The translations under genes were made by a program, and so were the position numbers. The notes beneath the pieces were generated by a model that was not told the DNA's origin, ran no database searches, and saw only the letters and a list, made by a program, of their open reading frames with translations. From Nitrospira sp. (GTDB lineage: Bacteria > Nitrospirota > Nitrospiria > Nitrospirales > Nitrospiraceae), in contig JAHFEW010000038.1 of the NCBI GenBank assembly GCA_023248215.1, forward strand, positions 1-40,555: 40,555 bases of DNA, in the 5' to 3' direction. Positions 14,341 to 38,394 of this stretch are shown here, piece by piece (position 1 is the stretch's first letter; each line of letters starts with the position of its first letter).

Positions 14341-15381
14341 ACGTCTATCGATTCCGCAAGACACGAACTTCTTCACGGCATCCTCAAGCAGGTTTCCCGG
14401 TCGTTTTATCTGACCCTCAACGTGCTGCCGGCGAATGTACGCGACCAGATGGGCTTGGCGTATCTCTTCGCGCGTGCGGCCGACACCATTGCCGATACCG
14501 ATTTGATCGGCCGTGAGCAGCGGCTTCGGTATCTCCAGCAGTTTCGGGCGCAGTTCACCACCGACGATGGGCAGCGACGGGACCTGCAGGCCATTCAAGC
14601 CGCACTGGTCCCTCATCAAGCGGACTCTGCAGAACGTGTGCTGCTGCAGCGGCTGGATGAGTGCCTGACGCTGTACCACGAGTTCGACCCAGGCGATCGA
14701 GAACGGATTCAATGGTTGATGGGGGTGTTGCCGGATGGGATGACGATGGATCTCACGCGTTTTCATGGGGAGTCGGCGCAGGATCTGACGGCTCTTCAGA
14801 CCTTGGACGAATTGGATCGGTACATCTATTACGTCGCCGGTTGTGTCGGAGAGTTCTGGACTAGGATGGTCTGTGCCCATCGCCCGGCTATGGCGCCGTG
14901 GGATCTGAAGCAGATGTCGGCCATTGGCGTGCGATTCGGCAAAGGCTTGCAGCTCACAAACATTGTGAAGGATATCGCCCGGGATCTTCACCGCGGCCGC
15001 TGCTATGTGCCGGAACCGCTCCTCCGCGAAGCCGGACTCACGCCGGCTGACTTGCTGAATCGAAACAGCCTGCCGAAGTTCAGGCCGGTTTTAAATCAGC
15101 TGATCAGACTCGCCGTGGAACACTTGGACCAGGGCTGGATGTACACGATGGCGATCCCACGCTTAGAAGTTCGTCAACGATTAGCCTGTATGTGGCCGAT
15201 TCTGCTGGCCGGCGAAACCCTGAAGCGCGTAGCGGCCGCTCCTGATCTCCTCGACCCCACCGTCAATGTCAAAGCGCCGCGCTCCGTCGTCTATCGCGTC
15301 CTGGCGCTGACCATCTTCACCGGCGCCTGCGGCTACGTCGGCACTGCCTATTGGGGACGATTGCGGAAGCAAATTATATAG
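14341..15381 (+). CDS. Squalene/phytoene synthase family protein, ACG start
   Basis: Condenses two prenyl diphosphates head-to-head (squalene or phytoene class), feeding hopanoid or carotenoid synthesis. Aspartate motif 1 is in ARAADTIADTD; motif 2 is in NIVKDIARDLHRGR. A C-terminal hydrophobic segment (VLALTIFTGACGYVGTAYW) could anchor it. The first ATG/GTG/TTG in frame is GTG 14422, but 27 codons before it already encode family-conserved sequence, including SRSFYLTL. The only codons after the upstream TAA that sit well behind the AAGAAGG site (14327-14333) are ACG 14341, seven bases away, or ATC 14347. I chose ACG; the protein would be 346 residues. A sequencing error (ATG to ACG) is the main alternative. 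Confidence 0.82.
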   Translation, partial: TSIDSARHELLHGILKQVSRSFYLTLNVLPANVRDQMGLAYLFARAADTIADTDLIGREQRLRYLQQFRAQFTTDDGQRRDLQAIQAALVPHQADSAERVLLQRLDECLTLYHEFDPGDRERIQWLMGVLPDGMTMDLTRFHGESAQDLTALQTLDELDRYIYYVAGCVGEFWTRMVCAHRPAMAPWDLKQMSAIGVRFGKGLQLTNIVKDIARDLHRGRCYVPEPLLREAGLTPADLLNRNSLPKFRPVLNQLIRLAVEHLDQGWMYTMAIPRLEVRQRLACMWPILLAGETLKRVAAAPDLLDPTVNVKAPRSVVYRVLALTIFTGACGYVGTAYWGRLRKQII

Positions 15382-15618
15382 CAGGAGGCTGAAACAGTCT
15401 GCCAGCAGCGTTCTCGCCTCGTTCAGACCCTCAACGTACTCCCATGGTAGAAGCGTCCTGTCCCGGCAGGCTCGGGGTGGGCGGGTAAGAAGGTGACGCC
15501 TCGGGCCGGGACACCGCCGGTTCGCCGCCTCACCGGCGTGAGCAAACGTGACGCTCTTTATTCATCGCGTCGCGCACCTCGCTGCGGCCTTGCTGGACGG
15601 CTTTTTTGAGCCTCCTGC
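15381..15618 (+). repeat. Dispersed palindromic repeat, copy A (long form)
   Basis: 238 bp. The ends are imperfect inverted repeats: left starts GCAGGAGGCTGAAACAG, right ends GGCTTTTTTGAGCCTCCTGC. The body shares long blocks with copy C (38158-38394, opposite strand), for example the identical 19-mer at 15542-15560, and a conserved hairpin CGCCGG...CCGGCG. The first base is the G of the TAG stop of the preceding gene. It fills most of the 373-bp gap to the next gene; the remainder, 15619-15754, holds nothing I can assign apart from a TATAGT near 15724. Confidence 0.85.
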
Positions 15619-15754
15619 GGAAGTGTTCTCCTGTAGTGCCACACGATGCGGACCATCGGAGCTCTTGTGTGCCGAAATAGTTTTTTCGCAGCCTTCTAGG
15701 CACGTCGATCTCGTCCGCTCTGCGGTATAGTTGGGGAGCAAGGAGGACTCGCGG

Positions 15755-16636
15755 ATGGGGATGATTCAACGGACACAGGCAACGTGGACGCAGCGGGTCG
15801 CGAGGACACAGGCGATCATGTCGGCCGCCTGGCAGCTCTTGAAAGAACAGAAGCAACTCCTACTGCTTCCCATCGCATCGTCCGCCTGTCTGCTGATTCT
15901 TACGGCCACATGGGCGATTCCCGTCGTTCTCGGGAGTTTCATAGACGCAGCGTGGCCGGATGCCGTACGACAGAGCGAGTCGTTGTCCTCTGTGGGCGTG
16001 TTTCTGTTCTACGTGGTGAGCTACGGGATCGGGATTTTCTTCAACGCCGCGCTCGCGATCTGTGTATTGCGGAAGCTTGAGGGAAGACCCGTCTCGATGC
16101 TCGCCGCCTTGCGCGAGGCCGTGACATTGCTCCCGCAAATTCTCGGCTGGGCAGTATTGTCGGCAACGGTCGGCGTAATCCTGAGAGCGATCGAACGCCG
16201 GTCAGGGTTTATCGGTGGGGTTGTGACGAGTATGCTAGGGCTCGCGTGGACCGTCGTCACGTTTCTCGTGGTGCCGGTCCTGGTCGCTGAGCGGAAGGGT
16301 CCGCTCGACGCCGTACGGGAATCCGCGCAGTTGTTGCGGCGAACGTGGGGAGAAGATCTCTTAGCGGGAATGGGATTTGGGGCGCTCTATTTCTTGTGGG
16401 CTATTCCAGGAGTTTTGGCCTTCGTCATCGGGGCAGCTATGATCGCGTCCCATCTGGTCATCGCCATCATCGTCATGGTTCTGGCGATCCTGTATTTCCC
16501 GCTGCTCGGCCTTGTGCTCTCCACTCTGTCGACGATCTTCGACGTCGTCCTGTACCGCTATGCCAAGCTCGGCACGATCACGCCAGGTTTCGACCGCGAC
16601 CTCCTCGAATCCTCGTTCGTCACCAAACGGGCCTAA
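15755..16636 (+). CDS. Multi-pass membrane protein, DUF6159-like
   Basis: 293 residues. The ATG at 15755 follows AAGGAGG at eight bases; an in-frame TTG at 15731 is rejected because it contains that site. About six hydrophobic segments, starting with LLLLPIASSACLLILTATWAIPVVL, and the cytosolic motif AERKGPLDAVRESAQLLRRTWGEDL, which is typical of DUF6159 proteins. Function unknown; these are inner-membrane proteins of roughly this length. It is monocistronic in this context, following repeat copy A. Confidence 0.75.
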   Translation: MGMIQRTQATWTQRVARTQAIMSAAWQLLKEQKQLLLLPIASSACLLILTATWAIPVVLGSFIDAAWPDAVRQSESLSSVGVFLFYVVSYGIGIFFNAALAICVLRKLEGRPVSMLAALREAVTLLPQILGWAVLSATVGVILRAIERRSGFIGGVVTSMLGLAWTVVTFLVVPVLVAERKGPLDAVRESAQLLRRTWGEDLLAGMGFGALYFLWAIPGVLAFVIGAAMIASHLVIAIIVMVLAILYFPLLGLVLSTLSTIFDVVLYRYAKLGTITPGFDRDLLESSFVTKRA

Positions 16637-16669
16637 TCGCTGCACCACTCTGACAATTCTCACTTCCGG

Positions 16670-16798
16670 TTGCGATTCTATGAGTTCGCCTACTGGTGCC
16701 GTTCAGGGGGGCGGCTGCATCAGTTCTTGGGGGAGTGGATTGCTTCTAGTCAGGCAGTGTGGGGGGCCGCGGCATCGAGAGCAGTGAATGAGCGGTGA
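16670..16798 (+). pseudogene. DUF2934-like remnant or tiny gene
   Basis: A 42-residue open frame with only a TTG start and no ribosome site. Its sequence RFYEFAYWCRSGGRLHQFL followed by GEWIAS resembles the DUF2934 pattern (a Tyr-Glu-Leu helix, then G-R and a D/E-W-L helix). Lack of a proper start and isolated position suggest a decayed gene. The resemblance is from memory of the family and should be treated as tentative. Confidence 0.3.
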
Positions 16799-16876
16799 AA
16801 CGGAGTACCGAGCCTTGTCACAGCGAGTAGCTGAGATGATGAGGAAGAGGTGAGATCGTTATCGGGTATGAGCTAA

Positions 16877-17173
16877 TTAGGCAGAAACGCGTTCCCATTC
16901 CCTGGCGCGAGCCGCAAAGGCTTCCTGGTAATGAGGCCAATCGTGAAGAGTCGCAGGATCGAAGTCTGCTCCGTTTGGCCATACGAGCGTCTTCACCTCC
17001 GGATCAATAGAGACTCGGTTGAACATCTGTAGGTCAAGAAGCGGACGATACAGTTCCCCCGCAAGGACTGGCCTAAAGTCAATCACTTGTTCCGCATTAT
17101 CGGTGAATTGAACGCGAAGCATGTATGGTCCGACAACCTCAAAGGCGCAAACTTGATAAATAGGATGATTCAT
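16877..17173 (-). CDS. DUF2442 domain protein, putative antitoxin-like partner
   Basis: 98 residues. The order PYMLRVQFTDN, DFRPVLAGELYRPLLD, FNRVSIDPEVKTLVWPNGADFDPATLHDW is the DUF2442 signature. Six bases downstream of the DUF4160 gene, with which it forms the well-known DUF4160-DUF2442 pair, widely scattered in bacteria and often proposed to be a toxin-antitoxin-type module. Which partner is toxic, if any, is not established here. Confidence 0.88.
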   Translation of the reverse strand: MNHPIYQVCAFEVVGPYMLRVQFTDNAEQVIDFRPVLAGELYRPLLDLQMFNRVSIDPEVKTLVWPNGADFDPATLHDWPHYQEAFAARAREWERVSA

Positions 17174-17179
17174 GGTTTT

Positions 17180-17449
17180 CTACGTCAATGGAGCAATGGG
17201 CAATGCTTTGTGGCCGGTTTGTAGTCTGTCCCAGTCGGCGACCAGTTCTGCTTGATGCAATTCAGCCCAGGCTTCGACTAGCCGCTGCTGGCGCTTCGGC
17301 AACATGCCAGCCAGCAGTTCGACAGGTTCAATCCCATACACTGCCACATGCTCCTGGTAATACGCGTGAAAATGTGGCGTATGATGCGAGGCCTGAACCT
17401 CGACGAACATTCTGATGATAATACCAAAGAAACGGCAAAGTTCAGGCAC
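17180..17449 (-). CDS. DUF4160 domain protein
   Basis: 89 residues, starting at GTG. RFFGIIIRMF followed by HHTPHFHAYYQEH is the diagnostic DUF4160 N-terminus with its His cluster, and the C-terminal helix WAELHQAELVADWDRL is also typical. Divergent from the AbiV-like gene and directly upstream of DUF2442 on the minus strand. Probably the first gene of a two-gene module, possibly a toxin or RNA-binding partner; function is not known. Confidence 0.88.
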   Translation of the reverse strand: MPELCRFFGIIIRMFVEVQASHHTPHFHAYYQEHVAVYGIEPVELLAGMLPKRQQRLVEAWAELHQAELVADWDRLQTGHKALPIAPLT

Positions 17450-17627
17450 AGTCCCATTCTACTCGCTCGCATAGGGGGCCGCAAGAAACTGCATTGTGGG
17501 GCGTAAGGCATGTGCCTGATTTATGAGCAAGGAAGAAAAACTTCGCCTCCGGTACGTCAGAACCGCCTGTGAGGCCGGTTGCGGAAATGGATTGCGTGAC
17601 CTATTTATTGTTGGGAGGTGTATTCCT

Positions 17628-18473
17628 ATGCGGCCCAAAGCAATAAAAGATCTCAGTCGTCTGACTGATCGGGACCTGTTTAAAAGCGTAGCCGAAGGAC
17701 TTAGTCTTATTCTCGAGAATGCACAGCACCTGCGGGAAGATTCTGAAAAGTTGGCCGCCGATGGTCGGTTCAGTGGATATCAAGTTCTGCGTACAGTCGC
17801 TGAAGAGGAAGCCTCAAAATTCCTTATTCTAATAGATGCCATCAGATGTCCCCGGACCCCAGCCGATCGTTGGTCTGGGCAGTTAGAGCGCTTTCACAAT
17901 CATGTGTCGAAGGGACTTTATAGCTGGGCCTGCAATTGTCGCCCTGCTACGTTCGGTCGGCTTCAGGAATATCTCAACTTAAAACGTCAGGAATTCTATC
18001 TCGATGGTCCAAACGATGTGGATTGGATTTTCAGGAACGATATTCTCCAGCGGCGAGAAGAGGCTCTCTATGTTGACTATGTCGAGACGGATGAAGGTCA
18101 TGTATGGTTAGATCCATCGCGTTACTCTCGGAGTGACCGGCCTATTTCAAGGGGCCTTGTCTTGCCAGGATTAATGATAAGTGAGGCACTTGCTAGTGTT
18201 GGAGCATCAAGTGCCGAAGGGTTAGCAGTGCTTGCTGATGTATGGCGGGCGACGTCCCCAAGCTTTGATCTTCACTGGGATGTGATTCGTGACCTTAACG
18301 GAGAGACGCTCATTCAGCTAGAGAAAAGGGGCCTTCTTAGGGAAACCTCTCATGAGGTACGCGAGAGGATATTAGATCGCTGGCAGTTTCCCATGTACGA
18401 CCTTGATCTCTCTTTGGTTAAGGTGAAGAAGGAGGAACTGCGTGAAATGCAGCGAAACTGGTACCCATCCTGA
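17628..18473 (+). CDS. AbiV-like abortive infection protein
   Basis: 281 residues. ATG at 17628 is preceded by GGGAGGTG at seven bases; the frame is open back to 17523 but without a ribosome site. The N-terminal 100 residues match the AbiV helical pattern: ENAQHLREDSEKLAADGRFSGY, then RTVAEEEASKFLILID, then RFHNHVSKGLY (the His-x-x-Lys element). AbiV in Lactococcus aborts phage infection by blocking late phage translation. The second half is unlike the short AbiV proteins and I do not recognise it. The local base composition is more AT-rich than neighbours, fitting horizontal acquisition along with the divergent DUF4160/DUF2442 pair. Confidence 0.6.
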   Translation: MRPKAIKDLSRLTDRDLFKSVAEGLSLILENAQHLREDSEKLAADGRFSGYQVLRTVAEEEASKFLILIDAIRCPRTPADRWSGQLERFHNHVSKGLYSWACNCRPATFGRLQEYLNLKRQEFYLDGPNDVDWIFRNDILQRREEALYVDYVETDEGHVWLDPSRYSRSDRPISRGLVLPGLMISEALASVGASSAEGLAVLADVWRATSPSFDLHWDVIRDLNGETLIQLEKRGLLRETSHEVRERILDRWQFPMYDLDLSLVKVKKEELREMQRNWYPS

Positions 18474-18542
18474 AATAGGGAAATGACTCGACGGAACAGT
18501 GTGCGATCGAGGCCGCGCGCCGTTCGTCAGCCGCGACTCCCT

Positions 18543-18839
18543 CTACTTCTTCTGCGGCTCCAGCAGCTTCTCGCCTTTTTTGAACACCGCATAGATCGCT
18601 TGCGACGGGCAGGCGTCCAAACAGAGCCGGCAGCTTTCGAGACAGCGAGAGGGATCAAACTTGTACGGCGGCGTGGAGAGCCACGCGCTGGTCGGGCAAA
18701 TGGGGACGCAAATGGCTTGATGGGTACAACGATCGGGATGACGGACAAGGTGATCGCGAATGACCAGCATGGGCTTCACTCCTTCGAAGAGACCTTGCGA
18801 GAAGATCTCGAACATGTTTTTTTGAGGTAGACTGCTCAT
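18543..18839 (-). CDS. Ferredoxin-like iron-sulfur protein with seven cysteines
   Basis: 98 residues. ATG 18839 overlaps the upstream stop (ATGA) behind AAGGAG; an in-frame GTG at 18845 is less likely. Two cluster motifs: C38-x5-C44-x3-C48-P lacks the second Cys (Gln at position 41), while C66-x3-C70-x2-C73-x3-C77-P has four. The Cys pattern suggests one 3Fe-4S and one 4Fe-4S cluster, as in 7Fe ferredoxins, though the spacing in both motifs is not standard. Last gene of the four-gene redox operon; likely an electron carrier for an unidentified oxidoreductase. Confidence 0.82.
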   Translation of the reverse strand: MSSLPQKNMFEIFSQGLFEGVKPMLVIRDHLVRHPDRCTHQAICVPICPTSAWLSTPPYKFDPSRCLESCRLCLDACPSQAIYAVFKKGEKLLEPQKK

Positions 18840-19249
18840 TTCCACTCCTTGACCAAGTCTTTGAGCCGGTCTTTCAATTCCGGGATCTGCTCCATATTGT
18901 TTCGAATCGCCCCGAGAATATTTTCAAGGCGTGCCAATCGTTGAGCGTCTTTGTCTCTCGTGACCAGCTGATCGTACTCGGTGTACGCCTCGCGGTGCCT
19001 GGGTTCGAGATAGCGGCGGCTTGCCTGCAGAGCTTCGCCCAATTCGTACGGCTCAGCCGCCAGCGCAGGGGCCACGATAAATGAACCGTCTGTGAAGACT
19101 AAGGCTGCCACTCCGGCTTTGCTCTTGAGCGGGGTCACGGCTTCTACCGTTTTCCCGGCGAGCTGCTCCCAATTGTGGAGCAGACCGGGAAAAGCTTTGA
19201 TGTAGGCCACTTTTTCCATGTTGGCCTTCCATTTATCGTCGGCTGGCAT
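18836..19249 (-). CDS. Protein of unknown function in redox operon
   Basis: 137 residues from ATG 19249; the frame extends to TTG 19288 but the shorter start gives a normal N-terminus. No cysteines. The first 75 residues look like a small beta-rich domain (GVAALVFTDGSFIVAP, reminiscent of a ligand-binding or regulatory strand pair), and the rest is helical and charged (a coiled-coil-like C-terminus, NNMEQIPELKDRLKDL). Overlaps the ferredoxin-like gene and sits 35 bp after the 2Fe-2S protein gene, so it is probably an accessory of those two proteins. Not recognised. Confidence 0.75.
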   Translation of the reverse strand: MPADDKWKANMEKVAYIKAFPGLLHNWEQLAGKTVEAVTPLKSKAGVAALVFTDGSFIVAPALAAEPYELGEALQASRRYLEPRHREAYTEYDQLVTRDKDAQRLARLENILGAIRNNMEQIPELKDRLKDLVKEWK

Positions 19250-19284
19250 AGAGACCTCGCGAGATGCAGCGGGCCGTGCTGGGT

Positions 19285-19635
19285 TCAACCTTTCAATGGA
19301 GAGAGGAGCGGGAGCGGAGACTGATCGGCCATCAGGAGTCGTTCGACAAGCTCCCCCTTCACGATGTGGCGCTCCATGATTTCCTTCACGTCAGCCTCGG
19401 AGGTGACGCGATACCAGACGCCTTCAGGATAGACCACCACGCTCGGACCTTGGGCGCAATAGTCCAGGCAGCCGGATTTGTTGGCGCGGACGATCCCTCT
19501 CAGGTTGAGTCGCTTCGCCTCTTGCTTGAAATAGGCGTGCAGCGCTTCGGAGCCGAGCTTGGAACAGCTGCCTCGCGGATCGTCGGGTTCCCGTTTGTTG
19601 GTACAGACGAAAATGTGTCGCCGGTAGCCTGTCAT
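19285..19635 (-). CDS. Thioredoxin-like 2Fe-2S ferredoxin
   Basis: 116 residues. Four ligands C11, C24, C56 and C60, in VCTNKREPDDPRGSCS and KSGCLDYCAQGP, match the (2Fe-2S) ferredoxins with a thioredoxin-like fold (Aquifex Fd4 and the NuoE-like family). C-terminal VVVYPEGVWY is the conserved core strand and loop. Role: one-electron transfer. The operon pairs it with a second iron-sulfur protein and two unknown proteins, one of which has CxxC pairs. Confidence 0.92.
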   Translation of the reverse strand: MTGYRRHIFVCTNKREPDDPRGSCSKLGSEALHAYFKQEAKRLNLRGIVRANKSGCLDYCAQGPSVVVYPEGVWYRVTSEADVKEIMERHIVKGELVERLLMADQSPLPLLSPLKG

Positions 19636-19671
19636 GCTGTTTGTTCCAGGAATGCAGTCCGATGTGAATGG

Positions 19672-20040
19672 TCACGCCCGGGCATGAAATCGCTCGATCA
19701 GCTGCTTGACGTCCGCCAGGTTGAGGAGCGGCGAGCCGGGCGCCTGCGTGCCTGCGATCGCGGCAATTTCCTGGAGGCGCAATTGCGCGCGTTGTTTCGC
19801 TTCCGGTTCGGAGAGGGCGGATGCCTGCCCCTCTCCGAGCTTATCGAACTCGGCTCGGATATCGCGAAAATCGCGTTGCAGGTGTTTCATCATCGAGCAG
19901 GGGTCGCAATACCATTTCGGGCTTTGATCCGAGGCAGGTGAGAGACGATCATAGGTGCGTCCAAAAAAATCTTTACCCAGCGACAGCTTCATCAAGGGTG
20001 TGCCTGTGGCGTTGCAGGCATTACAGGATCCGGCATCCAT
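19672..20040 (-). CDS. CxxC-containing protein of unknown function
   Basis: 122 residues. Two cysteine pairs, C6-x2-C9 and C45-x2-C48, could form a zinc ribbon or a thiol-based site; the rest is an acidic helical region (55-100) and a C-terminal LADVKQLIERFHARA helix. No signal peptide. First gene of the four-gene minus-strand redox operon, 36 bp before the 2Fe-2S ferredoxin. ATG is preceded by GGAGAGGAG. I do not recognise the family. Confidence 0.75.
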   Translation of the reverse strand: MDAGSCNACNATGTPLMKLSLGKDFFGRTYDRLSPASDQSPKWYCDPCSMMKHLQRDFRDIRAEFDKLGEGQASALSEPEAKQRAQLRLQEIAAIAGTQAPGSPLLNLADVKQLIERFHARA

Positions 20041-20084
20041 GCGTGAGGTGCTCCTCTCCAGCGGAAGTGATCGATAGAGAGCGG

Positions 20085-20114
20085 ATCTTACCGCACTGAT
20101 CTTTGCCGTAGCAA
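20085..20114 (-). promoter_or_regulatory. Candidate promoter of the redox operon
   Basis: On the minus strand TTGCTA (20114-20109) and TAAGAT (20090-20085) are separated by 18 bp, 45 bp upstream of the first gene of the operon. Moderate match to the sigma-70 consensus. Confidence 0.35.
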
Positions 20115-20159
20115 GGTGGGCATGTCCTCACTGCGCACCGGCGATCGGTGTGTTCCATG

Positions 20160-20165
20160 TATAAT
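20160..20165 (+). promoter_or_regulatory. -10 box of the ald promoter
   Basis: Perfect TATAAT 42 bp before the ald ATG, in the divergent region opposite the redox operon. No convincing -35 is present at 16-18 bp; the TG immediately before the box may act as an extended element. Confidence 0.4.
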
Positions 20166-20207
20166 GGGGTGCAGGGACGAAACAAGTTGGAGTGTAAGGA
20201 GGCGGTT

Positions 20208-21311: not shown

Positions 21312-21345
21312 GACAATCCAAAACTCCTGTTCGGTTCTGCCCGGT

Positions 21346-21839
<494 letters not shown>

Positions 21840-22127
21840 ATGACCAAGGCCGACGCATGTGTGCGTGCAAAAATTCTTGTCAGCGGGCATGTGCAAGGAG
21901 TCGGCTATCGTGCGTTCGCATGCCGCACGGCAGTCTCGCGTGGACTGACGGGTGGTGTAGAGAATCTCGATAGCGGACAAGTTGCCCTGGATGTCGAAGG
22001 AACCAGGGAGGCGCTTGAGGAATTATTAGTGGATCTCAAAAAGGGACCGGTCGGGGCGCGCGTGTCGCAAGTCCAAGTGGAGTGGAGCAGCGCCACGGGC
22101 CGACATCACGATTTCACGATTTGGTAG
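21840..22127 (+). CDS. acyP: Acylphosphatase
   Basis: 95 residues, the family length. [11 protein letters not shown] carries the phosphate-binding loop and catalytic Arg (GYR), and VENLDSGQV holds the catalytic Asn. Hydrolyses acyl phosphates such as acetyl phosphate or 1,3-bisphosphoglycerate. It ends 14 bp before the sigma factor ATG, suggesting co-transcription, though the functions are not obviously connected. Confidence 0.94.
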
Positions 22128-22141
22128 CAGGTCACGACGTT

Positions 22142-23140: not shown

Positions 23141-23164
23141 GGACGTCCCGACCTGATTGCGCCC

Positions 23165-31086: not shown

Positions 31087-31116
31087 GCCGTGGCTCCTGC
31101 GCGGTCCGGAATCGCG

Positions 31117-32271
31117 ATGAAGAGCCGGAATCACGTCGTCCTCGCCATCGCCGGGTTCTTGTTCCTCCTCATCGTGTTGATGGAATGGATGTTCCCTCTC
31201 AATGTGGTGGGCGCATTCGGATTCGTCCTGCCGATTCTGCTGGTGGCCACCGTTCGTAGTCGACGGCTCATGGTCTTCACACTGGCGTTGTGTATTCTGG
31301 TGACGTTTATCGGCCTCTTCCAGCCGGGGAAGAAGCGGGAGCGATTCACCGCTGTTGTTTTCAATCGCACCATGGTGGTCTGTGTCCTGGCAGGAGTTGC
31401 CTATATCGGCATGACATGGGAAGAACGCAAAGCCCGCGAAGAGGCGGCCAGATCCGCGTTGGCGACGCAAACCGAACACCTCCTGCGGGCGAATACACAG
31501 CTCGTCGAGATCAAGGATAAGCTGGCACGATCCGAACGGCTGGCTGCCGTGGGGCAGTTGGTGACTTCTGTGGCGCATGAAGTGGGGACGCCGTTGCATT
31601 CGATCGCCTGGCATGTGGAAGCCTTGAAGGAGGAGTCTGGTGTCACTGCCGAGATGCAAAAACGGATCGGCATCATCGATGAGCAGTTGAATCGCGTGGT
31701 GCGTATCATTCAAGATCTCTTGTCGTCGACCAGACAACGTAAGCCGGAGCCGACGTGGTATCCTGCAGAGCAATTGATCGGGACAGTCGTCGCCTTGATG
31801 GAGCCCGGATACCATGCCAAGGGGGTTACGCTTCAGACCGAGATGGCGCAGCCAGTGCCGCTCGTCTGGGCGGATGCCGACAGGATTCACCAGGTGTTGG
31901 TCAACCTCCTGACCAATGCTTTGGTTGCGACGGGGGCGGGAGGGCATGTGATGGTCACCGTGGCGACGCGTCCGGCCTCGACAGAGGAAATAGAGAGTGC
32001 GTCTTGCACGGGCCGGTTCGATCTCGACACCATGGTCACGTTGGCGGTGTGCGATTCCGGCTGTGGGATGCCGCAGGAAGATGTGGATCGGGCGTTTCAG
32101 CCGTTTTTTACGACCAAGGCGATTGGCAAGGGAACCGGCTTGGGGCTATTTCTGAGCCGCGAAGCCGTCGTGGCCCACGGGGGACAGTTGACACTAAAGA
32201 GCGAGGTCGGGGCGGGTACGACGGTCACCGTGGTCCTGCCCGGTTTGCCGTCGGACTCAGCCGCGGTCTAG
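31117..32271 (+). CDS. Membrane histidine kinase, NtrB-like
   Basis: 384 residues. ATG 31117 is used; GTG 31090, three bases after malQ, is possible. Hydrophobic segments at about 8-24, 31-46, 50-67 and 83-98 form a small membrane domain with no visible extracellular sensor, followed by a coiled coil (100-140), HisKA with H154 in SVAHEVGTPLHS, and HATPase with NLLTNA, DSGCGMP and GKGTGLGL. The partner is the NtrC-family regulator encoded after the intervening repeat copy B. Confidence 0.92.
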   Translation: MKSRNHVVLAIAGFLFLLIVLMEWMFPLNVVGAFGFVLPILLVATVRSRRLMVFTLALCILVTFIGLFQPGKKRERFTAVVFNRTMVVCVLAGVAYIGMTWEERKAREEAARSALATQTEHLLRANTQLVEIKDKLARSERLAAVGQLVTSVAHEVGTPLHSIAWHVEALKEESGVTAEMQKRIGIIDEQLNRVVRIIQDLLSSTRQRKPEPTWYPAEQLIGTVVALMEPGYHAKGVTLQTEMAQPVPLVWADADRIHQVLVNLLTNALVATGAGGHVMVTVATRPASTEEIESASCTGRFDLDTMVTLAVCDSGCGMPQEDVDRAFQPFFTTKAIGKGTGLGLFLSREAVVAHGGQLTLKSEVGAGTTVTVVLPGLPSDSAAV

Positions 32272-32394
32272 CAGGCTGTTGAAAAAGTCCGCCAGCGGCG
32301 TTCTCGTGGCGTGCAGAGGTTCCCCGTAAGACAAAAGTTCGCATCGCCTCTTCACTGGCTGCGGCCTTGCTGGACAGCCTTTTTGAACAGCCTG
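32271..32394 (+). repeat. Dispersed palindromic repeat, copy B (short form)
   Basis: About 124 bp. Terminal inverted repeats: left starts GCAGGCTGTTGAAAAAG, right ends CTTTTTGAACAGCCTG. The right half includes GGCTGCGGCCTTGCTGGACAG, matching copy A. Shorter and lacking the central blocks of copies A and C. Its first base is the G of the TAG stop of the kinase gene, and it lies between that kinase and its response regulator. Terminal hairpin could attenuate read-through. Confidence 0.8.
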
Positions 32395-32488
32395 TGGGCT
32401 ATTCTGTGACCATCCGTGAGTGTCTACGGTTCTGGATTCCCACAGATCCAAAATGGTTTTTGAATGCCCTGCTAGGAGAGATATACCG

Positions 32489-33883
32489 ATGAGCCAGGCG
32501 AAACTATTCGTGGTCGATGACGACGATGCCGCGCGCACCCTGCTGGCTGAGGCGCTGCTGAAGGAAGGATATGAGGTCGAAGCGTTTTCCAGCGGCCAGG
32601 CCGCCGTTGAACGTGGCAAACAATCGCGCGCCGACGTGGTCCTGACCGATATTCGGATGGAGCAAGGCGACGGCTTTCTGGTGTTGAAGGAGTTCAAGCG
32701 GTTCAGCCCGGATACGTCGATCGTGTTATTGACGGCGTTCGGGTCGTTGGAGGGCGCGATCGAAGCCATCAAGCAAGGGGCCTACGACTATCTCGCCAAG
32801 CCCTTCAAGAAAGAAGACATCCGCCTGGTGGTGCAACGCAGCTTGGAACATTGTCGACTGGTTCGAGAAAATGCCCGCTTTCGGGACGATGCGCGCTCGC
32901 GCGAACCCTGGTCGCAGTTGGTGGGCAGCAGCCCGGCGATGTTAGAGGTATACAAGCTGGTGGCCCGGGTTTCCGAAGGGCGAAGCACGGTGCTCATTGA
33001 GGGGGAGAGCGGAACCGGGAAGGAGTTAATCGCGCGGGCGGTGCATTTGAACAGTCCCCGTCGGGATAAACCGTTTATTCCCGTCAACTGCGGCGCGTTG
33101 CCTGATCACCTGCTGGAATCGGAAATGTTTGGATATGAAAAGGGTGCCTTTACGGGAGCCGTGGGCGCCAAGGCCGGTTTGTTCGAAGCGGCTCACGGCG
33201 GGACGCTGTTTCTCGATGAGATCGGCGATCTCGGCCAGGCACTCCAGGTGAAATTGCTGCGGGTGATGCAAGAACAGGAAGTGCGACGCGTCGGCAGTAC
33301 CTCGTCGGTGAAGGTTGATGTGCGCATCATTGCCGCGACCAATCGCGACCTGGCCACACTCGTGAAAGAGGGGAAGTTTCGCGACGACTTGTACTATCGT
33401 CTCAACGTGGTGCGCATTGCCCTGCCGTCGTTGGCCGAGCGGCGGGAAGACATTACGATGCTTGCCCATCATTTCCTGCAGAAGTATGCCAAGCAATCGT
33501 TGCATGTGAGGGGGTTTCTGCCGGAAACGATGGCGTTGCTGAAGCGCTACCACTGGCCGGGGAATGTGCGTGAGCTGGAAAATGCCGTGGAACGGGCGGT
33601 CTCCCTCAGCCACGGCCCGCTGTTGCTGCCGGACGATCTTCCGGAGTCAATTAGAGCTGAACCCGATCCGGCGGACTTGCTCAAGGCGGATCGAAGCGAT
33701 GCGGATCCGGACGCGTTATTGACGTTGGACGAGGTTGAGAAACGGCACCTGGCGCGTGTGCTCAAGGAGACGCGGGGAAACAAGGTCAAGGCGGCCAAAA
33801 TTCTTGGGATCGATCGGCGCACGCTGTATCGGATGGCGGAGCGGTTCGGGTTGGATTTCGGCGATGATGCCGAAGAGAAATAG
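32489..33883 (+). CDS. NtrC-family sigma-54 response regulator
   Basis: 464 residues. ATG 32489 follows TAGGAGAG. Receiver with phospho-acceptor D54 (VLTDIRMEQGD), AAA+ domain with Walker A GESGTGKE (172-179), sigma-54 loop GAFTGA (219-224), Walker B TLFLDEIG (239-246), and a Fis-type HTH in KAAKILGIDRRTLYRMAE. It activates sigma-54 promoters after phosphorylation by the adjacent kinase. Target genes cannot be assigned: I found no convincing -24/-12 element in the window. Confidence 0.96.
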   Translation: MSQAKLFVVDDDDAARTLLAEALLKEGYEVEAFSSGQAAVERGKQSRADVVLTDIRMEQGDGFLVLKEFKRFSPDTSIVLLTAFGSLEGAIEAIKQGAYDYLAKPFKKEDIRLVVQRSLEHCRLVRENARFRDDARSREPWSQLVGSSPAMLEVYKLVARVSEGRSTVLIEGESGTGKELIARAVHLNSPRRDKPFIPVNCGALPDHLLESEMFGYEKGAFTGAVGAKAGLFEAAHGGTLFLDEIGDLGQALQVKLLRVMQEQEVRRVGSTSSVKVDVRIIAATNRDLATLVKEGKFRDDLYYRLNVVRIALPSLAERREDITMLAHHFLQKYAKQSLHVRGFLPETMALLKRYHWPGNVRELENAVERAVSLSHGPLLLPDDLPESIRAEPDPADLLKADRSDADPDALLTLDEVEKRHLARVLKETRGNKVKAAKILGIDRRTLYRMAERFGLDFGDDAEEK

Positions 33884-33892
33884 ATCGGTTCG

Positions 33893-34339
33893 TTAGAGCA
33901 GTCGAAGCGCGTTCTTAATCAGGCGAATTTCATTTGCGGCACTCTGCGGCAACGGCGTCTCGGCCTCCTCCCACGAGTCGAAGAGCCCATCCTTCCCACG
34001 ATGAAACACTTGGAGCCGTAACCGTGTGGTGCTGTCGTCTTGCGGGACCACTCGAGCCTCCACCCGGCTCTTGCCCACCCCGAATCTCCAGCGCAGGAGC
34101 CCGTTCCACGGACTTCTGATCTCCTGTCGCATGCCGGTCGTCAGGTTGCCGGCATCGTCTTGATCGACACGATAGCCTCCTTGCGTCAGGACATCTGCCA
34201 CGGCAGTTTTGACTTGGTCGGAAGCAATCGGGAGGGTCACTTCCATCACATCCGGCTCAGGATAAGGAGGTCCTCCCGCGCACCCAGCCACCGTGGCGAC
34301 TAACAGCAGGGCCCTGATACTCGCGGCAGGAGATCTCAT
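33893..34339 (-). CDS. Putative lipoprotein
   Basis: 148 residues. Signal with lipobox VAGC near residue 20, then a mature beta-rich domain (ASDQVKTAVADVLTQGGYRVDQDD followed by RLRLQVFHRGK), which resembles small periplasmic alpha/beta proteins with a helix and sheet. Not recognised. Its ATG overlaps the stop of the preceding RAM-domain gene (ATGA), so the two are coupled. Confidence 0.75.
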   Translation of the reverse strand: MRSPAASIRALLLVATVAGCAGGPPYPEPDVMEVTLPIASDQVKTAVADVLTQGGYRVDQDDAGNLTTGMRQEIRSPWNGLLRWRFGVGKSRVEARVVPQDDSTTRLRLQVFHRGKDGLFDSWEEAETPLPQSAANEIRLIKNALRLL

Positions 34340-34590
34340 TTGGGTTTCCCTTCCTGAAGGCGGTAAACCATATGGGTGTCCGTCTGGTCGACCCCGGGGA
34401 TCGCATGAATTTTGGCGAGCACCAGTTGGGTGAGCGCATCCTGGTGGGGGATTTCGACGATGGTGAAAATATCTGGTTTGCCCCAGCAGGGATCGATTTG
34501 TTTGATTTCCTTAATCGTCGTCAAGGCCTTTACGACATCCGCCGTTTGACCGGGGTGGACATTGATCAACACGTAGGCTTTGTCCGGCAT
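34336..34590 (-). CDS. Lrp/AsnC ligand-binding (RAM) domain protein
   Basis: 84 residues. AYVLINVHPGQTADVVKAL and a C-terminal segment HAIPGVDQTDTHMVYRL form the beta-alpha-beta RAM fold of Lrp/AsnC regulators. There is no HTH, so it is a stand-alone amino-acid or effector-binding module. ATG 34590 is chosen; the frame extends to 34629. Such stand-alone RAM proteins bind amino acids and may modulate partners. Overlaps the lipoprotein gene. Confidence 0.85.
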   Translation of the reverse strand: MPDKAYVLINVHPGQTADVVKALTTIKEIKQIDPCWGKPDIFTIVEIPHQDALTQLVLAKIHAIPGVDQTDTHMVYRLQEGKPK

Positions 34591-34721
34591 GCAGGGGGTC
34601 TCCCATGGTGTGCGCGAGTCTGGCGGCAACGCCTGCCCGCGATTCGGAACCTAGCGGATTGCTTCGGATGAAGTCAACAGAACGTCGTCTATTCGGTGGG
34701 CAGTGATGGTATTGCGTCGCG

Positions 34722-36422
34722 CTATTTTGGGGCGACGATGACCTCCACCATATACGCGTCGCTGATCGTGGTGAGGTCGGCCTCCAGCCCGCGAGGATTT
34801 CCGACTCGACCCTCAGGGTCGTAGATAAAGCATAGCAGGGTGTTTCCGTTCGGTCGTGCAGCATAATGGGCTACGTCTGCCTTCACCTGCTCGGCGAGGT
34901 CCTTCGTGGTCAACCCCGAACGGGTCTGTTTGACGACGACGACCGTCCTGTCCCAGTCGAGAAGGTAGCTGGTCCGTGGAGCGCCGCTTGCATAGCTCGG
35001 AGTCCACTCTTCCGTCCCGACCTCATCGAATTGCAGTCGCAGGAGCGCGTAGAACAGGTCCTGCAGGTCGTATTCGTCGGTGATTTCCAGCGTCGGGCGG
35101 TACTCTTTTCGCAAACGGAGCTGGCGGGCTACCAGGTGGAAACGTGCGCAGATTCTCCGGAGCATGTCGAGTGTTCCGTTCTCCGCCTGGCTACTCTCCA
35201 TGCTCGACTTCTGGGGGGCCTCGAGCGCCGGAGGGGCAGCCGAAAATTCCATGGCAGGTGCCACGGACTCTGTCGGCTTGGGGCCAGGGGCAGAAGGTCT
35301 AGGTGGCTGAATGGATAGCACTTCGGTTGGGACTTCGGGAACAACGGTTACTCTGTCGTGCGGCGGCTTTTCTATCAAAGCATTGGCTGTGGTTTCAATC
35401 GGCGCAGGGGACAGGGGGGTGTCCGTAGTCGAGGTGGATGGCAGGGTGTCTGCTGGTTCTGAGCCCCTGCGTAATGACAAGGGAGGCCCTGTCGGCGCAA
35501 CCGACGCACCCGCAGGATGTTGAGTCGTCTGTGGGACAGGGGGAATGGCTCCCTGCGGAATCACTGTCCGGAGCGATGCTGTTGTCGGAATCGCCGCTGT
35601 GGTCGAATGCTGTTCCGGTGGACTCGACGAGTCTGTGGTGCTTGCTGGGGCCGGTGGGGCAGGAGTTGTGGGGCCCGGAGCCGGCACGGCTAAGGTGGGC
35701 TTGCTCTCGTCAACAGGAATCGAGGCAGGTCCAGTCTGCGTGGTGTCAGGTTGGGGCGACGACGATGGATGGGGCTGGCGAGGCATCGATATTTCGCGAA
35801 CCGGTTGCGGTGAAGACGCCGGATCCGTAGAGATAGGCACTGGATTGACCGTGACCGGTGGGGTCATGACTATCGGCGTGATGGCTTGTGCCGGCGGGCT
35901 GAGGTTGGTCGTCATCGCAACCGAGATCGTCATTGGAGCGCTGGTCATGGTCACGGCGGCGATGGGGGGGGTACTCAGGGCGCCGGGTGCAGGGATTGAC
36001 TCGGAAGGAAGGCGTGGGGGCACTGCCGTCAACGTAGGTCGTTCGGTTGCTGCCGGCGGAGGTGCCACTGGTGAGGCCGGTTTGAGACCCAAGAGCTCTG
36101 CCTTCTGATTCTCCAGCGTGGCGATCAATTCCTTCACGAGTCCAGTGCTCTGTGCGGACTCCGTACGACTGCCGACTCGTAGCTTGTGATTCTTGTGCGT
36201 CTGATACTCCGGCGATTTTTCGCCGAAGAGCCGCCGAATCGTTTCGCGAAAGGAAAGTTCGGTTCTGGCGCGGACCGCTTCACGATAGGGAAAGCCATCC
36301 CGGCTGAGGTCGTCGATTTGCGTGCTCAAGTCACGCAATTTCGCGATGCCGCGGGTGAGTTCTTCTGCGGCGTTTGGTTTTGTCCGGCTGCGCTGCGGTT
36401 CGCTTGGTTTTGCTCGTGCCAT
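34722..36422 (-). CDS. Proline-rich protein with degenerate PD-(D/E)XK domain
   Basis: 566 residues. A helical N-terminal domain (1-115, with DGFPYREAVRARTELSFRE) is followed by a Pro/Thr/Ser/Ala-rich linker (about 116-410) and a C-terminal domain (about 419-566) of the DpnII/MboI-like PD-(D/E)XK nuclease family (TDEYDLQDLFYALLRLQFD, EEWTPSYA, CFIYDPEGRVGNPRGLE). Active homologues keep DFLL then EVK; here the Asp is Ser (S485) and the Glu is Val (V496), with only K498 left. It is probably inactive as a nuclease. A binding or scaffold role is possible. Confidence 0.8.
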   Translation of the reverse strand: MARAKPSEPQRSRTKPNAAEELTRGIAKLRDLSTQIDDLSRDGFPYREAVRARTELSFRETIRRLFGEKSPEYQTHKNHKLRVGSRTESAQSTGLVKELIATLENQKAELLGLKPASPVAPPPAATERPTLTAVPPRLPSESIPAPGALSTPPIAAVTMTSAPMTISVAMTTNLSPPAQAITPIVMTPPVTVNPVPISTDPASSPQPVREISMPRQPHPSSSPQPDTTQTGPASIPVDESKPTLAVPAPGPTTPAPPAPASTTDSSSPPEQHSTTAAIPTTASLRTVIPQGAIPPVPQTTQHPAGASVAPTGPPLSLRRGSEPADTLPSTSTTDTPLSPAPIETTANALIEKPPHDRVTVVPEVPTEVLSIQPPRPSAPGPKPTESVAPAMEFSAAPPALEAPQKSSMESSQAENGTLDMLRRICARFHLVARQLRLRKEYRPTLEITDEYDLQDLFYALLRLQFDEVGTEEWTPSYASGAPRTSYLLDWDRTVVVVKQTRSGLTTKDLAEQVKADVAHYAARPNGNTLLCFIYDPEGRVGNPRGLEADLTTISDAYMVEVIVAPK

Positions 36423-36526
36423 AGTAACGCGCCTCTATTGAGAACAGTCTATCGAAGGAGTGCCTGATAAGAATCCAGTGTCGCCCGTCCGTCGTTCTTC
36501 GGCGAGGAACGTGGTGACGACTGGCG

Positions 36527-37021
36527 TTAGTCAAACCACTCGACATCACCCTTTCCCGACGGCGCCGTTTTCTTGGGATTTGCGGTGGCGGGTGGGCCGG
36601 CCAGGACTTGTCGCACCAGGATCAGCAGCGCATCGGTGGTAAAGGGTTTCCTCAGAAACGGCAATCCGTCTCGGAGGAGGCCACGGTTGCGCAACTCAGG
36701 ACCGGGACTGCTGGACATGAGAATGATGCGGATGTCTCGCTTTCCTTCCAGCAGGCGCTCGACCATCTCGAGCCCATTCACGCGAGGATAGGGATTTTTG
36801 TCGACGGACAGTTGGAATCCAGGCGGTGGCAGGAAGATGTCGGCTAGGATGAGATGCACGGGGTTGGGGTATTCCGCATAGAGTCTGAGAGCTTCGGAGC
36901 TTCCCGGGGCTTGGAGCACGGTATAGCCGGCCTCCTGCAGCGGTTTCGCGCTCAGTAGAAGGGTTGAGGGGTCGTCGTCGACAATCAAAATGGTCGAGGG
37001 CTGTATCAAGTCAGTGGTCAT
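36527..37021 (-). CDS. Single-domain response regulator with loop insertion
   Basis: 164 residues, receiver only. Acidic pocket DDD15-17, phospho-acceptor D61 (LILADIFLP) and K near FLRKPF. Between D61 and the next helix there is an insertion of about 14 residues (GFQLSVDKNPYPR) that normal receivers lack; this loop sits beside the active site. The C-terminus is an unstructured tail. No output domain, so it may act by protein contact, or as a phosphate sink. A weak functional link to the hybrid kinase operon is possible; no kinase is adjacent. Confidence 0.88.
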   Translation of the reverse strand: MTTDLIQPSTILIVDDDPSTLLLSAKPLQEAGYTVLQAPGSSEALRLYAEYPNPVHLILADIFLPPPGFQLSVDKNPYPRVNGLEMVERLLEGKRDIRIILMSSSPGPELRNRGLLRDGLPFLRKPFTTDALLILVRQVLAGPPATANPKKTAPSGKGDVEWFD

Positions 37022-37091
37022 GGTGGACTCCTCTAGGGCGTCTCCTGTGTCCCTCGGTATTTACGGCGGTCGGCGCCTGAGAGACACGGCA

Positions 37092-37940
37092 TTAGAACGG
37101 ATGGGGTTGCTCCTTGAGCCGTTCGTACTCCCGCTGTTCGCAGCTGCCTTGTTTTGCTCGTAGGGATTCAGGGACGTCCGCGAAGCGCAAGGCGCAATAA
37201 CGCTGGGCCTGTCGGCGTCGGTCGAGGTCCTGCTGTTCTTCCAGCTGCTGAAGGCGTGCTGTGAGATCGATGGCTGGAAGATCTTTGCCCGCCGGTTTGT
37301 CCTGACGAGGCGTCATCGACGGGTCGTCGCTGGAACGTGGGTGCGGGCCGTTCAATCGCCAATGTGTCAGTACATCGTCCTGATTGAACACAATGGTTAA
37401 GCCGAATTGGGAGTAATCCCAAATCAGTTCGCCCCTGTCCGGATGCGCCCAGATGGAACGAGGCAGTCCGTACCGGTTCCACACTTCATCGCGCAGCATC
37501 CCTACGCGCGGCGTCAGATTTCGGATCGCCGTGATCTGCGCAAGAATTGGGGAAATGTCCGTCTGCCTGCCGGGGGTTGTGTGTTTTGTGAGGGATTCCA
37601 GCGCGGCGCGAGGGGCGCGCAATAATCGCCACACCGTGACCAGTCCTGAAGCACAGTCGGAGGGGTGCGGGTCTTCGAAGACCATTTGTGTATCCAGCGG
37701 AAACCCTCCGATTTCCTGGGCGCGTGTGAAGTTCTTGACCTCCTGGATGGCGGCCACATAAGCACGTTGACGCCCCTCTTCGACGTTCGGCGCGCAGGAG
37801 GATCGTCCGGTGAAGAATACATCGTCGCCAAAATGGAACAAGGCTTGCTCCGTCCAAAAAGGACGATTCTCAGCAGCCCTTACCATCGAGGTCGTGAGGA
37901 GACCTAGGCTGAGAAGCGCGGTCACAATGCGATGGACCAT
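37092..37940 (-). CDS. Exported protein of unknown function
   Basis: About 282 residues from ATG 37940, chosen because a signal peptide (VTALLSLGLLTTSMVRAAE) begins there; no strong ribosome site is present and the frame is open to 38033. Mature part contains FFTGRSSCAPNVEEGRQRAY, then an alpha-helical segment, then WDYSQFGLTIVFNQDDVLTHW and a charged Gln/Arg-rich helical tail (about 225-250). Five cysteines could form disulfides. I do not recognise the family. Confidence 0.7.
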   Translation of the reverse strand: MVHRIVTALLSLGLLTTSMVRAAENRPFWTEQALFHFGDDVFFTGRSSCAPNVEEGRQRAYVAAIQEVKNFTRAQEIGGFPLDTQMVFEDPHPSDCASGLVTVWRLLRAPRAALESLTKHTTPGRQTDISPILAQITAIRNLTPRVGMLRDEVWNRYGLPRSIWAHPDRGELIWDYSQFGLTIVFNQDDVLTHWRLNGPHPRSSDDPSMTPRQDKPAGKDLPAIDLTARLQQLEEQQDLDRRRQAQRYCALRFADVPESLRAKQGSCEQREYERLKEQPHPF

Positions 37941-38157
37941 ACGCGTGCGAGATGAACAGACGTTATGTGGCGGCACCCCTGCAGTATAACGCGTGGGTCG
38001 ATTAAATCGACAAAAGAGCAATTTCGCGCTCAACCGCCGATAATGTGGAGAACAAGAGGCCCTGTCAGAGAGTCCGTGGGAGGATCATCAGCTCGCGGGT
38101 TCTCGAAGCTTCAGAATAAAAACGGTTAGCAGGTCTTAGCACATAAGATACGAACCA

Positions 38158-38394
38158 GCAGGATGCTCAAAAAAGCCGATCAGCAGGGCCGCAGCGAGGT
38201 GTTCGATGCGAGGGGTAAAGAGCGTCACGTTTGCGCGCGCCGGTGAGGCGGTGAACCGGCGGTTTCCCGACCCGAGGCATCACGTTCCTCCCCTCCGACT
38301 CCGAGCCTGCCGTGACAGGTTCTTCTCCCATGGGGGTACGTTGAGGGTCTGAACGAAGCGAGAAAGCTGCTGACGGACTTGTTCAGCATCCTGT
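38158..38394 (-). repeat. Dispersed palindromic repeat, copy C (long form)
   Basis: About 237 bp and aligned end to end with copy A on the opposite strand: the identical 19-mer at 38216-38234, the hairpin CGCCGG...CCGGCG, and both terminal repeats. By eye identity is roughly 80-85%. Read on the minus strand its first base follows directly, or overlaps by one, the TAA stop of the lipoprotein gene. It and a 124-bp remainder (38034-38157) fill the gap before the exported protein gene. Confidence 0.85.

What the first reader, a model, noticed from the sequence alone, without database searches (positions are those of the whole stretch)
15381..38394. Dispersed repeat family whose three copies each begin at a stop codon
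Three copies (15381-15618 plus, 32271-32394 plus, 38158-38394 minus) share imperfect terminal inverted repeats and internal blocks. In each, the left end coincides with the stop codon of the adjacent co-oriented gene: TAG|CAGG in A and B, TAA|CAGG in C. One long form (A, C) contains a conserved hairpin and an identical 19-mer; B lacks the middle. Either the element targets 3' ends precisely, or it supplies the stop codon and has trimmed the genes. It looks like a non-autonomous mobile element or a structured 3' UTR module.
Basis: seen in the sequence. Interest (0 to 1): 0.75.

Follow-up and report, generated by a model that had tools for sequence, protein, structure and literature searches.

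The report
Nitrospira mini-transposon that inserts at stop-codon motif
The three repeats are copies of a small parasitic DNA element of the nitrite-oxidising bacterium Nitrospira, probably moved by an IS5-type transposase into a four-letter site such as CTAG or CTAA that is duplicated on insertion; because that site contains a stop codon, a copy can land exactly at the end of a gene without damaging it.

Summary
The repeat family is real and much larger than the window shows: 125 left ends in this genome with at most 3 mismatches, 0 in the reversed control, and matches in 24 of 24 same-genus relatives. The genus is Nitrospira (inferred). The element (about 200 or 315 bp) is flanked by a 4-bp duplication, mostly CTAG, CTAA or TTAG: 30 of 32 recent copies in two species have identical 4-mers on both sides. 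Relatives hold a 1.3-kb insertion sequence with the same terminus, the same kind of duplication and an IS5-type transposase. All three window copies have exact empty sites where the gene already stops, so nothing was trimmed. Of 87 insertions outside genes 37 sit on a stop codon; the motif plus loss of insertions inside genes predicts about 27-37%. The left part is a hairpin with compensatory changes, function unproven. Verdict: a new MITE family of a known kind, with a neat, mostly ordinary cause of the stop-codon rule.

The parts
15378..15381 (+). copy A, left target copy ATAG, containing the TAG stop of the squalene/phytoene-synthase-family gene 14422-15381
   Evidence: in relatives this codon is TAG, TAA or TGA, mostly after C
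15382..15695 (+). copy A, whole element, long form; left-to-inner hairpin region 15382-15617, right segment with third terminus 15618-15695
   Evidence: inner end at 236, right end at 315 counting the C of the target copy
15696..15699 (+). copy A, right target copy CTAG
32268..32271 (+). copy B, left target copy CTAG, containing the TAG stop of the histidine kinase gene 31090-32271
32272..32471 (+). copy B, whole element, short form; inner end at 32394
32472..32475 (+). copy B, right target copy CTAG; continues into GAGAG ahead of an ATG at 32489, so the likely ribosome-binding site of the response regulator gene is kept
   Evidence: relative G041 reads CTCTAG then GAGACACATACCGATG with no element
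38394..38397 (-). copy C, left target copy CTAA, containing the TAA stop of the 229-aa ORF 38394-39083
38130..38393 (-). copy C, element, long form; inner end near 38159; right segment mostly missing (about 30 nt left instead of about 78)
38126..38129 (-). copy C, right target copy CTAA
   Evidence: flanks outside 38397 and 38126 abut in relative G041 (gap 5, expected 5)

Best explanation
The copies are a miniature inverted-repeat transposable element (MITE) of the genus Nitrospira. Its outer termini, CAGGNTGNNGAAAAAG on the left and (reverse complement) CAGGCTGCGGAAAAAC on the right, match the termini of an IS5-type insertion sequence, CAGGCTGCGGAAAAAC. The transposase inserts the element into a 4-bp site NTAR (mostly CTAG, CTAA, TTAG) and the site is duplicated. 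Shown: anatomy, duplication, empty sites, recent copies, the IS in relatives, depletion inside genes. Inferred: that this transposase moves the MITE, and that selection removes insertions inside genes. The stop codon rule follows: TAG or TAA lies inside the target, so an insertion at a stop leaves the stop intact in one target copy and the downstream sequence intact in the other. Such sites are a large part of all harmless sites in a genome about 86% coding (sampled). The element supplied no stop and trimmed no gene at the three window loci. The left 125-240 nt pair the left terminus with an internal inverted copy of it, which covaries between copies; the inner copy carries a conserved C where outer termini carry G, which I infer keeps the transposase from using it.
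For: Copy number and specificity. Third terminus and flanking duplications. Recent copies: 16 of 30 complete short copies in G000 and 16 of 22 in G023 have a neighbour at 97% or more; of these 32, 30 have identical 4-mers on both sides and 32 identical 3-mers (CTAG, TTAG, CTAA, GTAG, ATAG; shuffled means 10.1 of 16 and 6.0 of 16; 0.2% and 0% of 2000 shuffles reach 15). Related IS: copies with matching termini and flanks; 9 of 10 distinct two-ended copies of this and the sister IS have identical 4-mers (L245 reads CTAG/CTGG); transposase NF033581 IS5 family 285.4 and 278.9 bits against a cut-off of 140, PF05598 and PF01609; at 86-100% identity in G001 (two loci), G044, G023 (one TGA in the matched stretch) and G019. 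Empty sites: A in G007 (gap 17, expected 17), B in G041 (gap 0, expected 0) and others, C in G041 (gap 5, expected 5) and others. Stop share: of 93 insertions 37 at a stop, 6 inside a called gene, 49 intergenic, 1 at an edge, against 82 stop, 419 inside, 184 intergenic and 2 edge among CTAG, CTAA and TTAG sites in an element-free sample of 399,901 bp.
Against: No intact transposase of this family was found in the window's own genome: only a relic (61% identity over about 156 aa, three stops) without matching termini in its locus, although 16 complete short copies there look recent; the assembly is in 199 contigs. The stop share outside genes, 37 of 87, is above the lower predictions (p 0.001 for 0.267, 0.04 for 0.33, 0.06 for 0.34, 0.17 for 0.371), so some further preference or retention is not excluded. 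In G000, elements face the stop with the left end more often than with the right (20 to 5, p 0.004); G023 shows 7 to 6; pooled 26 to 11, p 0.02; orientation is not explained. The genes were called by a crude script of my own, trained on G000 and also used for G023. Older copies often lack a clean duplication: over all complete copies 35 of 63 (G000) and 19 of 32 (G023) have identical 4-mers; A itself has ATAG on the left and CTAG on the right.
Confidence: 0.9

Rival explanations
1. A REP/BIME-like element moved by a Y1 (IS200/IS605 or RAYT) transposase that recognises a hairpin foot tetranucleotide; the CTAG on the left would be target, that on the right part of the element, and nothing would be duplicated.
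For: Hairpin at the left end, tetranucleotide next to it, high copy number and palindromic arms. Palindromic repeats with a GTAG tag are the title subject of PMC3733652 (seen only in the search listing and start of abstract). How Y1 elements use target and right site is recalled.
Against: Near-identical copies carry different right-hand 4-mers that match their own left-hand 4-mer (CTAA with CTAA, TTAG with TTAG, GTAG with GTAG, ATAG with ATAG), which a duplication predicts and an element-borne right site does not. An IS with the same termini encodes a DDE transposase. I did not search for a Y1 gene.
Confidence: 0.03
2. Active targeting of gene 3' ends: the transposition machinery prefers the ends of genes (terminator zones, transcription-linked) beyond the NTAR motif.
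For: Stop share above the lower motif-plus-avoidance predictions (37 of 87 against 0.27-0.37); left-end orientation bias in G000 (20 to 5). Both G001 loci of the autonomous IS have one end on a called stop (at L252 the called gene is only 192 bp).
Against: The excess depends on the expectation used (p 0.001 to 0.17); recent copies, closest to the insertion spectrum, sit at a stop in 10 of 32 cases, about the prediction (flags); orientation bias absent in G023.
Confidence: 0.1
3. A domesticated structured module, for example a portable bidirectional transcription boundary after the stop codon, kept because the hairpin helps the host.
For: Compensatory changes: 64 cells changed on both sides against 17.0 in shuffles, 0 of 500; covariation score 0.206 against at most 0.076 with slid partners. 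Low folding energy: 38 of 39 distinct short copies below z -2. T runs follow a G+C-rich inner stem on both strands (seen in the sequence).
Against: The terminator scan of one copy found none on either strand; long copy A folds little better than shuffles (z -1.08); G-U and A-C cells are about equally common (15 and 12), so no sign that sense RNA is what is selected; arms could also be kept alike by template switching (inference). Two of the three window insertions (A, B) were seen filled in one relative only, G016, and no relative was seen to share C, which was read in 15 relatives.
Confidence: 0.2
4. The element supplies the stop codon and has shortened the genes into which it inserted.
For: Left end coincides with the stop. 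One relative, G004 (L315), has no stop at the aligned codon of copy B's gene.
Against: At the aligned codon a stop (TAG, TAA or TGA) stands in 26 of 26 relatives read at A, 25 of 26 at B and 14 of 15 readable at C (L332 one codon off; 10 more C loci not readable there); the stop belongs to the target, not to the element.
Confidence: 0.02

Closest known systems
IS5-family insertion sequences (E. coli IS5 as type)
   Same: DDE transposase above the cut-off of an NCBIfam IS5 model and 4-bp duplication of a YTAR-type site; YTAR for E. coli IS5 is stated in PMC10359306 (passages read)
   Different: The Nitrospira IS has ends CAGGCTGCGGAAAAAC; its MITE also uses GTAG and ATAG; the IS1182 model comes second (203 bits, below its cut-off of 270)
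Bacterial MITEs such as Correia/NEMIS, RUP, MITEAba12
   Same: Short, terminal inverted repeats, target duplication, relation to an IS, mostly intergenic (general description partly recalled; passages of PMC10969869, PMC2229807 and PMC6382973 seen)
   Different: Other termini and target; an internal third copy of the terminus; a target motif that contains a stop codon and is found at stops in 37 of 93 insertions
SPRITE, the S. [quoted passage not shown]
   Same: Repeated element with a terminator-like look (named in PMC10969869, passages read)
   Different: Terminator function is not shown here; evidence here is for mobility
REP/BIME elements with RAYT
   Same: Palindromic, tetranucleotide beside the hairpin (recalled; listing)
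   Different: Duplicated target and DDE transposase in the related IS

Membership tests
MITE (non-autonomous DNA transposon) | terminal inverted repeats | tested here: met
   (left and right ends share CAGGNTG and GAAAAA; the 5-nt variable block is rarely identical, 0 of 63 in G000)
MITE (non-autonomous DNA transposon) | target-site duplication | tested here: met
   30 of 32 recent copies identical over 4 bp; all complete copies 35 of 63 and 19 of 32
MITE (non-autonomous DNA transposon) | empty sites in relatives | tested here: met
   A, B, C each with at least one exact empty site
MITE (non-autonomous DNA transposon) | too short for a transposase; related autonomous element exists | tested here: met
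   mostly about 200-330 bp; IS in G001, G023, G019; none intact found in G000
MITE (non-autonomous DNA transposon) | mobilised in trans by that transposase | not testable with these tools
   needs a transposition assay
IS5 family (autonomous partner) | IS5-type DDE transposase | tested here: met
   NF033581 transpos_IS5_4, 285.4 and 278.9 bits, cut-off 140; PF05598 and PF01609
IS5 family (autonomous partner) | 4-bp YTAR-type duplication | tested here: met
   9 of 10 distinct two-ended IS copies, sister IS included, have identical 4-mers, 8 of them YTAR and one ATAG
REP/BIME with Y1 transposase | no target duplication; element-borne right site | tested here: not met
   right 4-mer follows the left 4-mer among near-identical copies
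REP/BIME with Y1 transposase | RAYT gene in the genome | not tested
   no search for a Y1 family was made
Known Rfam RNA family | covariance-model match at gathering score | tested here: not met
   only a tRNA in the window
Intrinsic terminator | G+C-rich hairpin followed by a T run, by scan | tested here: inconclusive
   scan of one short copy found none; longer interrupted stems are outside its definition

The most novel reading that the evidence does not exclude
The Nitrospira MITE is a portable gene boundary: its target motif brings it to stop codons without harm, and its covarying hairpin, with T runs on both strands, then insulates neighbouring genes, for instance splitting the histidine kinase and response regulator of copy B into separately expressed units; hosts keep such copies, so that stop-codon copies outlast others.
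Probability: 0.15. Interest if true: 0.65.

Novelty: new member of a known kind. Interest (0 to 1): 0.42.

Why it matters
It explains, with numbers, why a dispersed repeat can appear to begin at stop codons: a transposition target that contains a stop codon, duplicated on insertion, plus loss of insertions inside genes. The rule should hold for other elements with YTAR-type targets, and it can mislead readers into seeing 3' UTR modules or gene trimming. It also describes a recently active, genus-wide mobile family in Nitrospira, important nitrite oxidisers that are hard to culture (recalled), and points to an autonomous relative with which mobility can be tested.

Tried and rejected
Gene trimming: rejected by empty sites. 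REP/RAYT reading: rejected by matched 4-mers among near-identical copies. Duplication of 2 or 3 bp: the G023 copies with TTAG, GTAG and ATAG on both sides show 4 bp. Autonomous copy in the own genome: the PF01609 search gave only one gene with an internal stop, with no matching terminus in its locus, and the protein search a relic; a contig that begins inside a copy shows the MITE itself, not an IS. Orientation bias as a function signal: seen in G000, not in G023. The first control for stop codons counted all TAG and TAA triplets, element sites included; it was replaced. One right-end count gave 0 because the script masked one base too many; corrected. Paper searches: for a Nitrospira MITE (2 papers, 10 of 21 shown), Nitrospira with IS5 and repeats (3 papers), MITE with stop codon, CTAG and IS5 (none), and related searches. 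No listed title names this element. Opened, passages only: PMC12542641 (its putative MITEs lie in dioxane-gene contigs), PMC2229807, PMC10359306, PMC10969869, PMC6382973; the others were not opened. Only open-licence PMC papers are held; PMC11602168, on conserved prokaryotic MITEs, is not.

Rows dropped or not seen: one search dropped 21 of 133 raw hits; one search dropped 2 of 95 complete copies for short flanks; the alignment used 34 of the 39 distinct short copies (I left out four divergent copies and one near-duplicate, and trimmed a last base beyond the inner end); G023 stretches cover 44 of its 51 listed sites; one search lists 100 of its 125 sites and the other 25 were not sought; some matches without a locus were not fetched. 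'Complete' copies were found by a script that allows 60-95 nt from inner to right end. The 400-kb control sample was chosen from stretches without listed copies and held none. L239 has two terminus-like hits that do not make a pair and was not counted among two-ended IS copies.
Full report
WHAT WAS CHECKED. The three repeats are real. Copies A (15382-15695, plus), B (32272-32471, plus) and C (38393-38130, minus) each begin one base after an in-frame stop of a 319-, 393- and 229-aa ORF. A DNA search of the window's own genome (G000, 4.69 Mb in 199 contigs) with A gave 46 matches and with B 40; both scored only 40 of 184 and 149 candidates. A 25-base left-end pattern with up to 3 mismatches gave 125 places, the reversed control 0.

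The distance from inner end to right end is 75-81 nt in 62 of 63 complete copies of G000 (the script allowed 60-95). Copy C has lost most of its right segment.

TARGET DUPLICATION. Over all 63 complete copies of G000, 35 have the same four bases on both sides and 42 the same three; in G023 19 and 23 of 32. Last-base concordance (G with G, A with A) is beyond chance in both (Fisher p 0.0002 and 0.02). The clearest evidence is from recent copies, those with a neighbour of 97% identity or more: 15 of 16 in each genome have identical 4-mers (CTAG, TTAG, CTAA, GTAG, ATAG) and all 32 identical 3-mers; shuffling right sides gives means of 10.1 and 6.0. Since these copies are nearly identical inside, the right-hand bases are not carried by the element.

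EMPTY SITES. For each window copy the surrounding region was searched in 29 genomes of the genus and the sites were read. A: in G007 the flanks abut exactly and the gene ends CGTCTAG; in G016 the site holds a copy. B: in G041 the sequence reads CTCTAG directly followed by GAGACACATACCGATG, with gap 0; several other relatives also abut exactly; G016 holds a copy. C: in G041 the flanks abut (gap 5, expected 5) and the stop is TGA; L323 and L328 also abut. At the aligned codon a stop stands in 26 of 26 relatives read at A, 25 of 26 at B (the exception is G004, L315) and 14 of 15 at C (L332 is one codon off; in 10 more the printed stretch does not reach the stop). So the stop was there first. At B the right target copy also keeps the TAGGAGAG sequence before the response regulator's start codon, so the insertion fitted between two closely packed genes (histidine kinase, and sigma-54 response regulator) without changing either protein.

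THE RELATED AUTONOMOUS IS. PF01609 transposases were found in 22 of 29 genomes of the genus. Checking the ends of the loci fetched gave an IS of about 1.3 kb with CAGGCTGCGGAAAAAC at both ends, in G023 (flanks TTAG/TTAG), G001 (two loci, CTAG/CTAG each) and G019 (CTAG/CTAG). Its 342- and 363-aa ORFs hit NCBIfam IS5 (278.9 and 285.4 bits, cut-off 140) better than IS1182 (186 and 203, cut-off 270). A sister IS with CAGTGTGTTGACAAAC-type ends has the same kind of duplication. Of 10 distinct two-ended IS loci read, 9 have identical 4-mers; the tenth (L245) reads CTAG/CTGG. One end sits on the stop of a called gene at 3 of these 10 loci (L222, L252, L231; the L252 gene is only 192 bp). In G000 only a relic with three stops was found, although 16 of its 30 complete short copies have a neighbour at 97% or more and groups of 6 and 3 are identical. 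Either the source was lost recently or the draft assembly missed it.

WHY STOP CODONS. Left ends follow TAG or TAA in 83 of 112 copies of G000. In an element-free sample of 399,901 bp of G000, CTAG, CTAA and TTAG sites fall at a called gene's stop in 82 cases, inside a gene in 419, between genes in 184, at an edge in 2 (my own gene caller, 86.5% coding). If insertions inside genes are removed, 82 of 266, 31%, are expected at stops (39 of 105, 37%, for CTAG; 43 of 161, 27%, for the other two). Observed on the restored sites of 93 complete copies of two species: 37 stop, 49 intergenic, 1 edge, 6 inside a gene. The depletion inside genes is extreme (6 of 93 against 128 of 234 for CTAG, p 3e-23). 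The stop share outside genes is 37 of 87, somewhat above expectation (p 0.001 against 0.267, 0.04 against 0.33, 0.06 against 0.34, 0.17 against 0.371). The motif and the loss of harmful insertions therefore account for most of the rule; a modest extra preference or retention is possible. Recent copies sit at a stop in 10 of 32 (flags), older complete copies in 28 of 63 (minus); I do not treat this difference as established.

ORIENTATION. In G000 the left end faces the stop in 20 and the right end in 5 complete copies (p 0.004); in G023 7 and 6. The bias is not reproduced in the second species.

STRUCTURE. The left-to-inner part folds into one long interrupted hairpin; 38 of 39 distinct short copies have z below -2, while long copy A as a whole is unremarkable (z -1.08). 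On 34 distinct short copies the consensus structure has 95.6% of cells paired, 64 cells changed on both sides (shuffles 17.0, 0 of 500 reach it) and a covariation score of 0.206 against at most 0.076 with slid partners. The structure was derived from the same alignment, which favours it against the slid control. The 5-nt variable block of the left terminus is matched by the inner copy in 72 of 100 copies (shuffled 17.6) in G000 and 30 of 44 (14.2) in G023. One position is kept different: base 10 is G in the left terminus (100 of 100) and mostly in the right (57 of 63), but C in the inner copy (97 of 100) in G000, and likewise in G023 (43 of 44, 30 of 32, 40 of 44). I infer that this disarms the inner end. 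G-U and A-C cells are about equally frequent (15 and 12), so there is no sign that it is the sense RNA that is selected; pairing in DNA, pairing in RNA of either strand, or homogenisation of arms by template switching remain open.

RANGE AND NAMES. 24 of 24 same-genus relatives have left ends (1 to 74), 8 of 16 more distant genomes of the order (1 to 17), none in the reversed control. Among them is Candidatus Nitrospira defluvii, FP929003.1, whose length, 4,317,083, equals that of G023, so G023 is taken to be that genome and G000, in the same genus, a Nitrospira.

COMPARISON. YTAR as the duplication of E. coli IS5 is stated in PMC10359306 (passages). The review PMC10969869 (passages) calls it conceivable that MITEs form terminators; it holds the term 'stop codon' nowhere. 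No listed title of the searches (10 of 21 shown) is on a Nitrospira MITE; most of those papers were not opened. I file it as a new MITE family of an IS5-type element: known kind, new member, with an instructive cause for its position.

Noticed in passing
L204, L205, L223, L231, L240 (relatives): A sister IS with ends CAGTGTGTTGACAAAC or CAGGCTGTTGACAAAC, transposase 42-43% identical, also duplicates NTAR sites; L231 has one end on the stop of a 1,023-bp called gene.
   Followed up: partly
G000 C24:32573, C46:38513, C67:10109, C188:26864; G023 L394, L398: Divergent palindromic relatives of about 125-192 nt (such as CAGGCTGCTGAAAAAGGCC...), several without a right segment and with flanks such as TGA or CGA instead of TAR.
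   Followed up: no
L162:1428-1480: A mini-element of about 53 bp made of a terminus-like left piece and the usual right terminus next to CTAG.
   Followed up: no
all copies, base 10 of the termini: Conserved G in outer termini against C in the inner inverted copy, while the neighbouring variable block covaries.
   Followed up: partly
G000: At least 16 recent-looking copies but no intact transposase of the family found in an assembly rated 99.96% complete; two contigs begin inside or just beside a copy (L108, L048).
   Followed up: partly
L161 (G000 C156:49586): A PF01609 transposase gene with an internal stop and no matching terminus in its locus, apparently from another IS.
   Followed up: no
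G036 (same order, other family): 17 left-end matches in a 73% complete genome outside the genus, against 0-6 in the other 15; possible transfer or second expansion.
   Followed up: no
window 21346-21419: A tRNA gene, the only Rfam match in the window.
   Followed up: no
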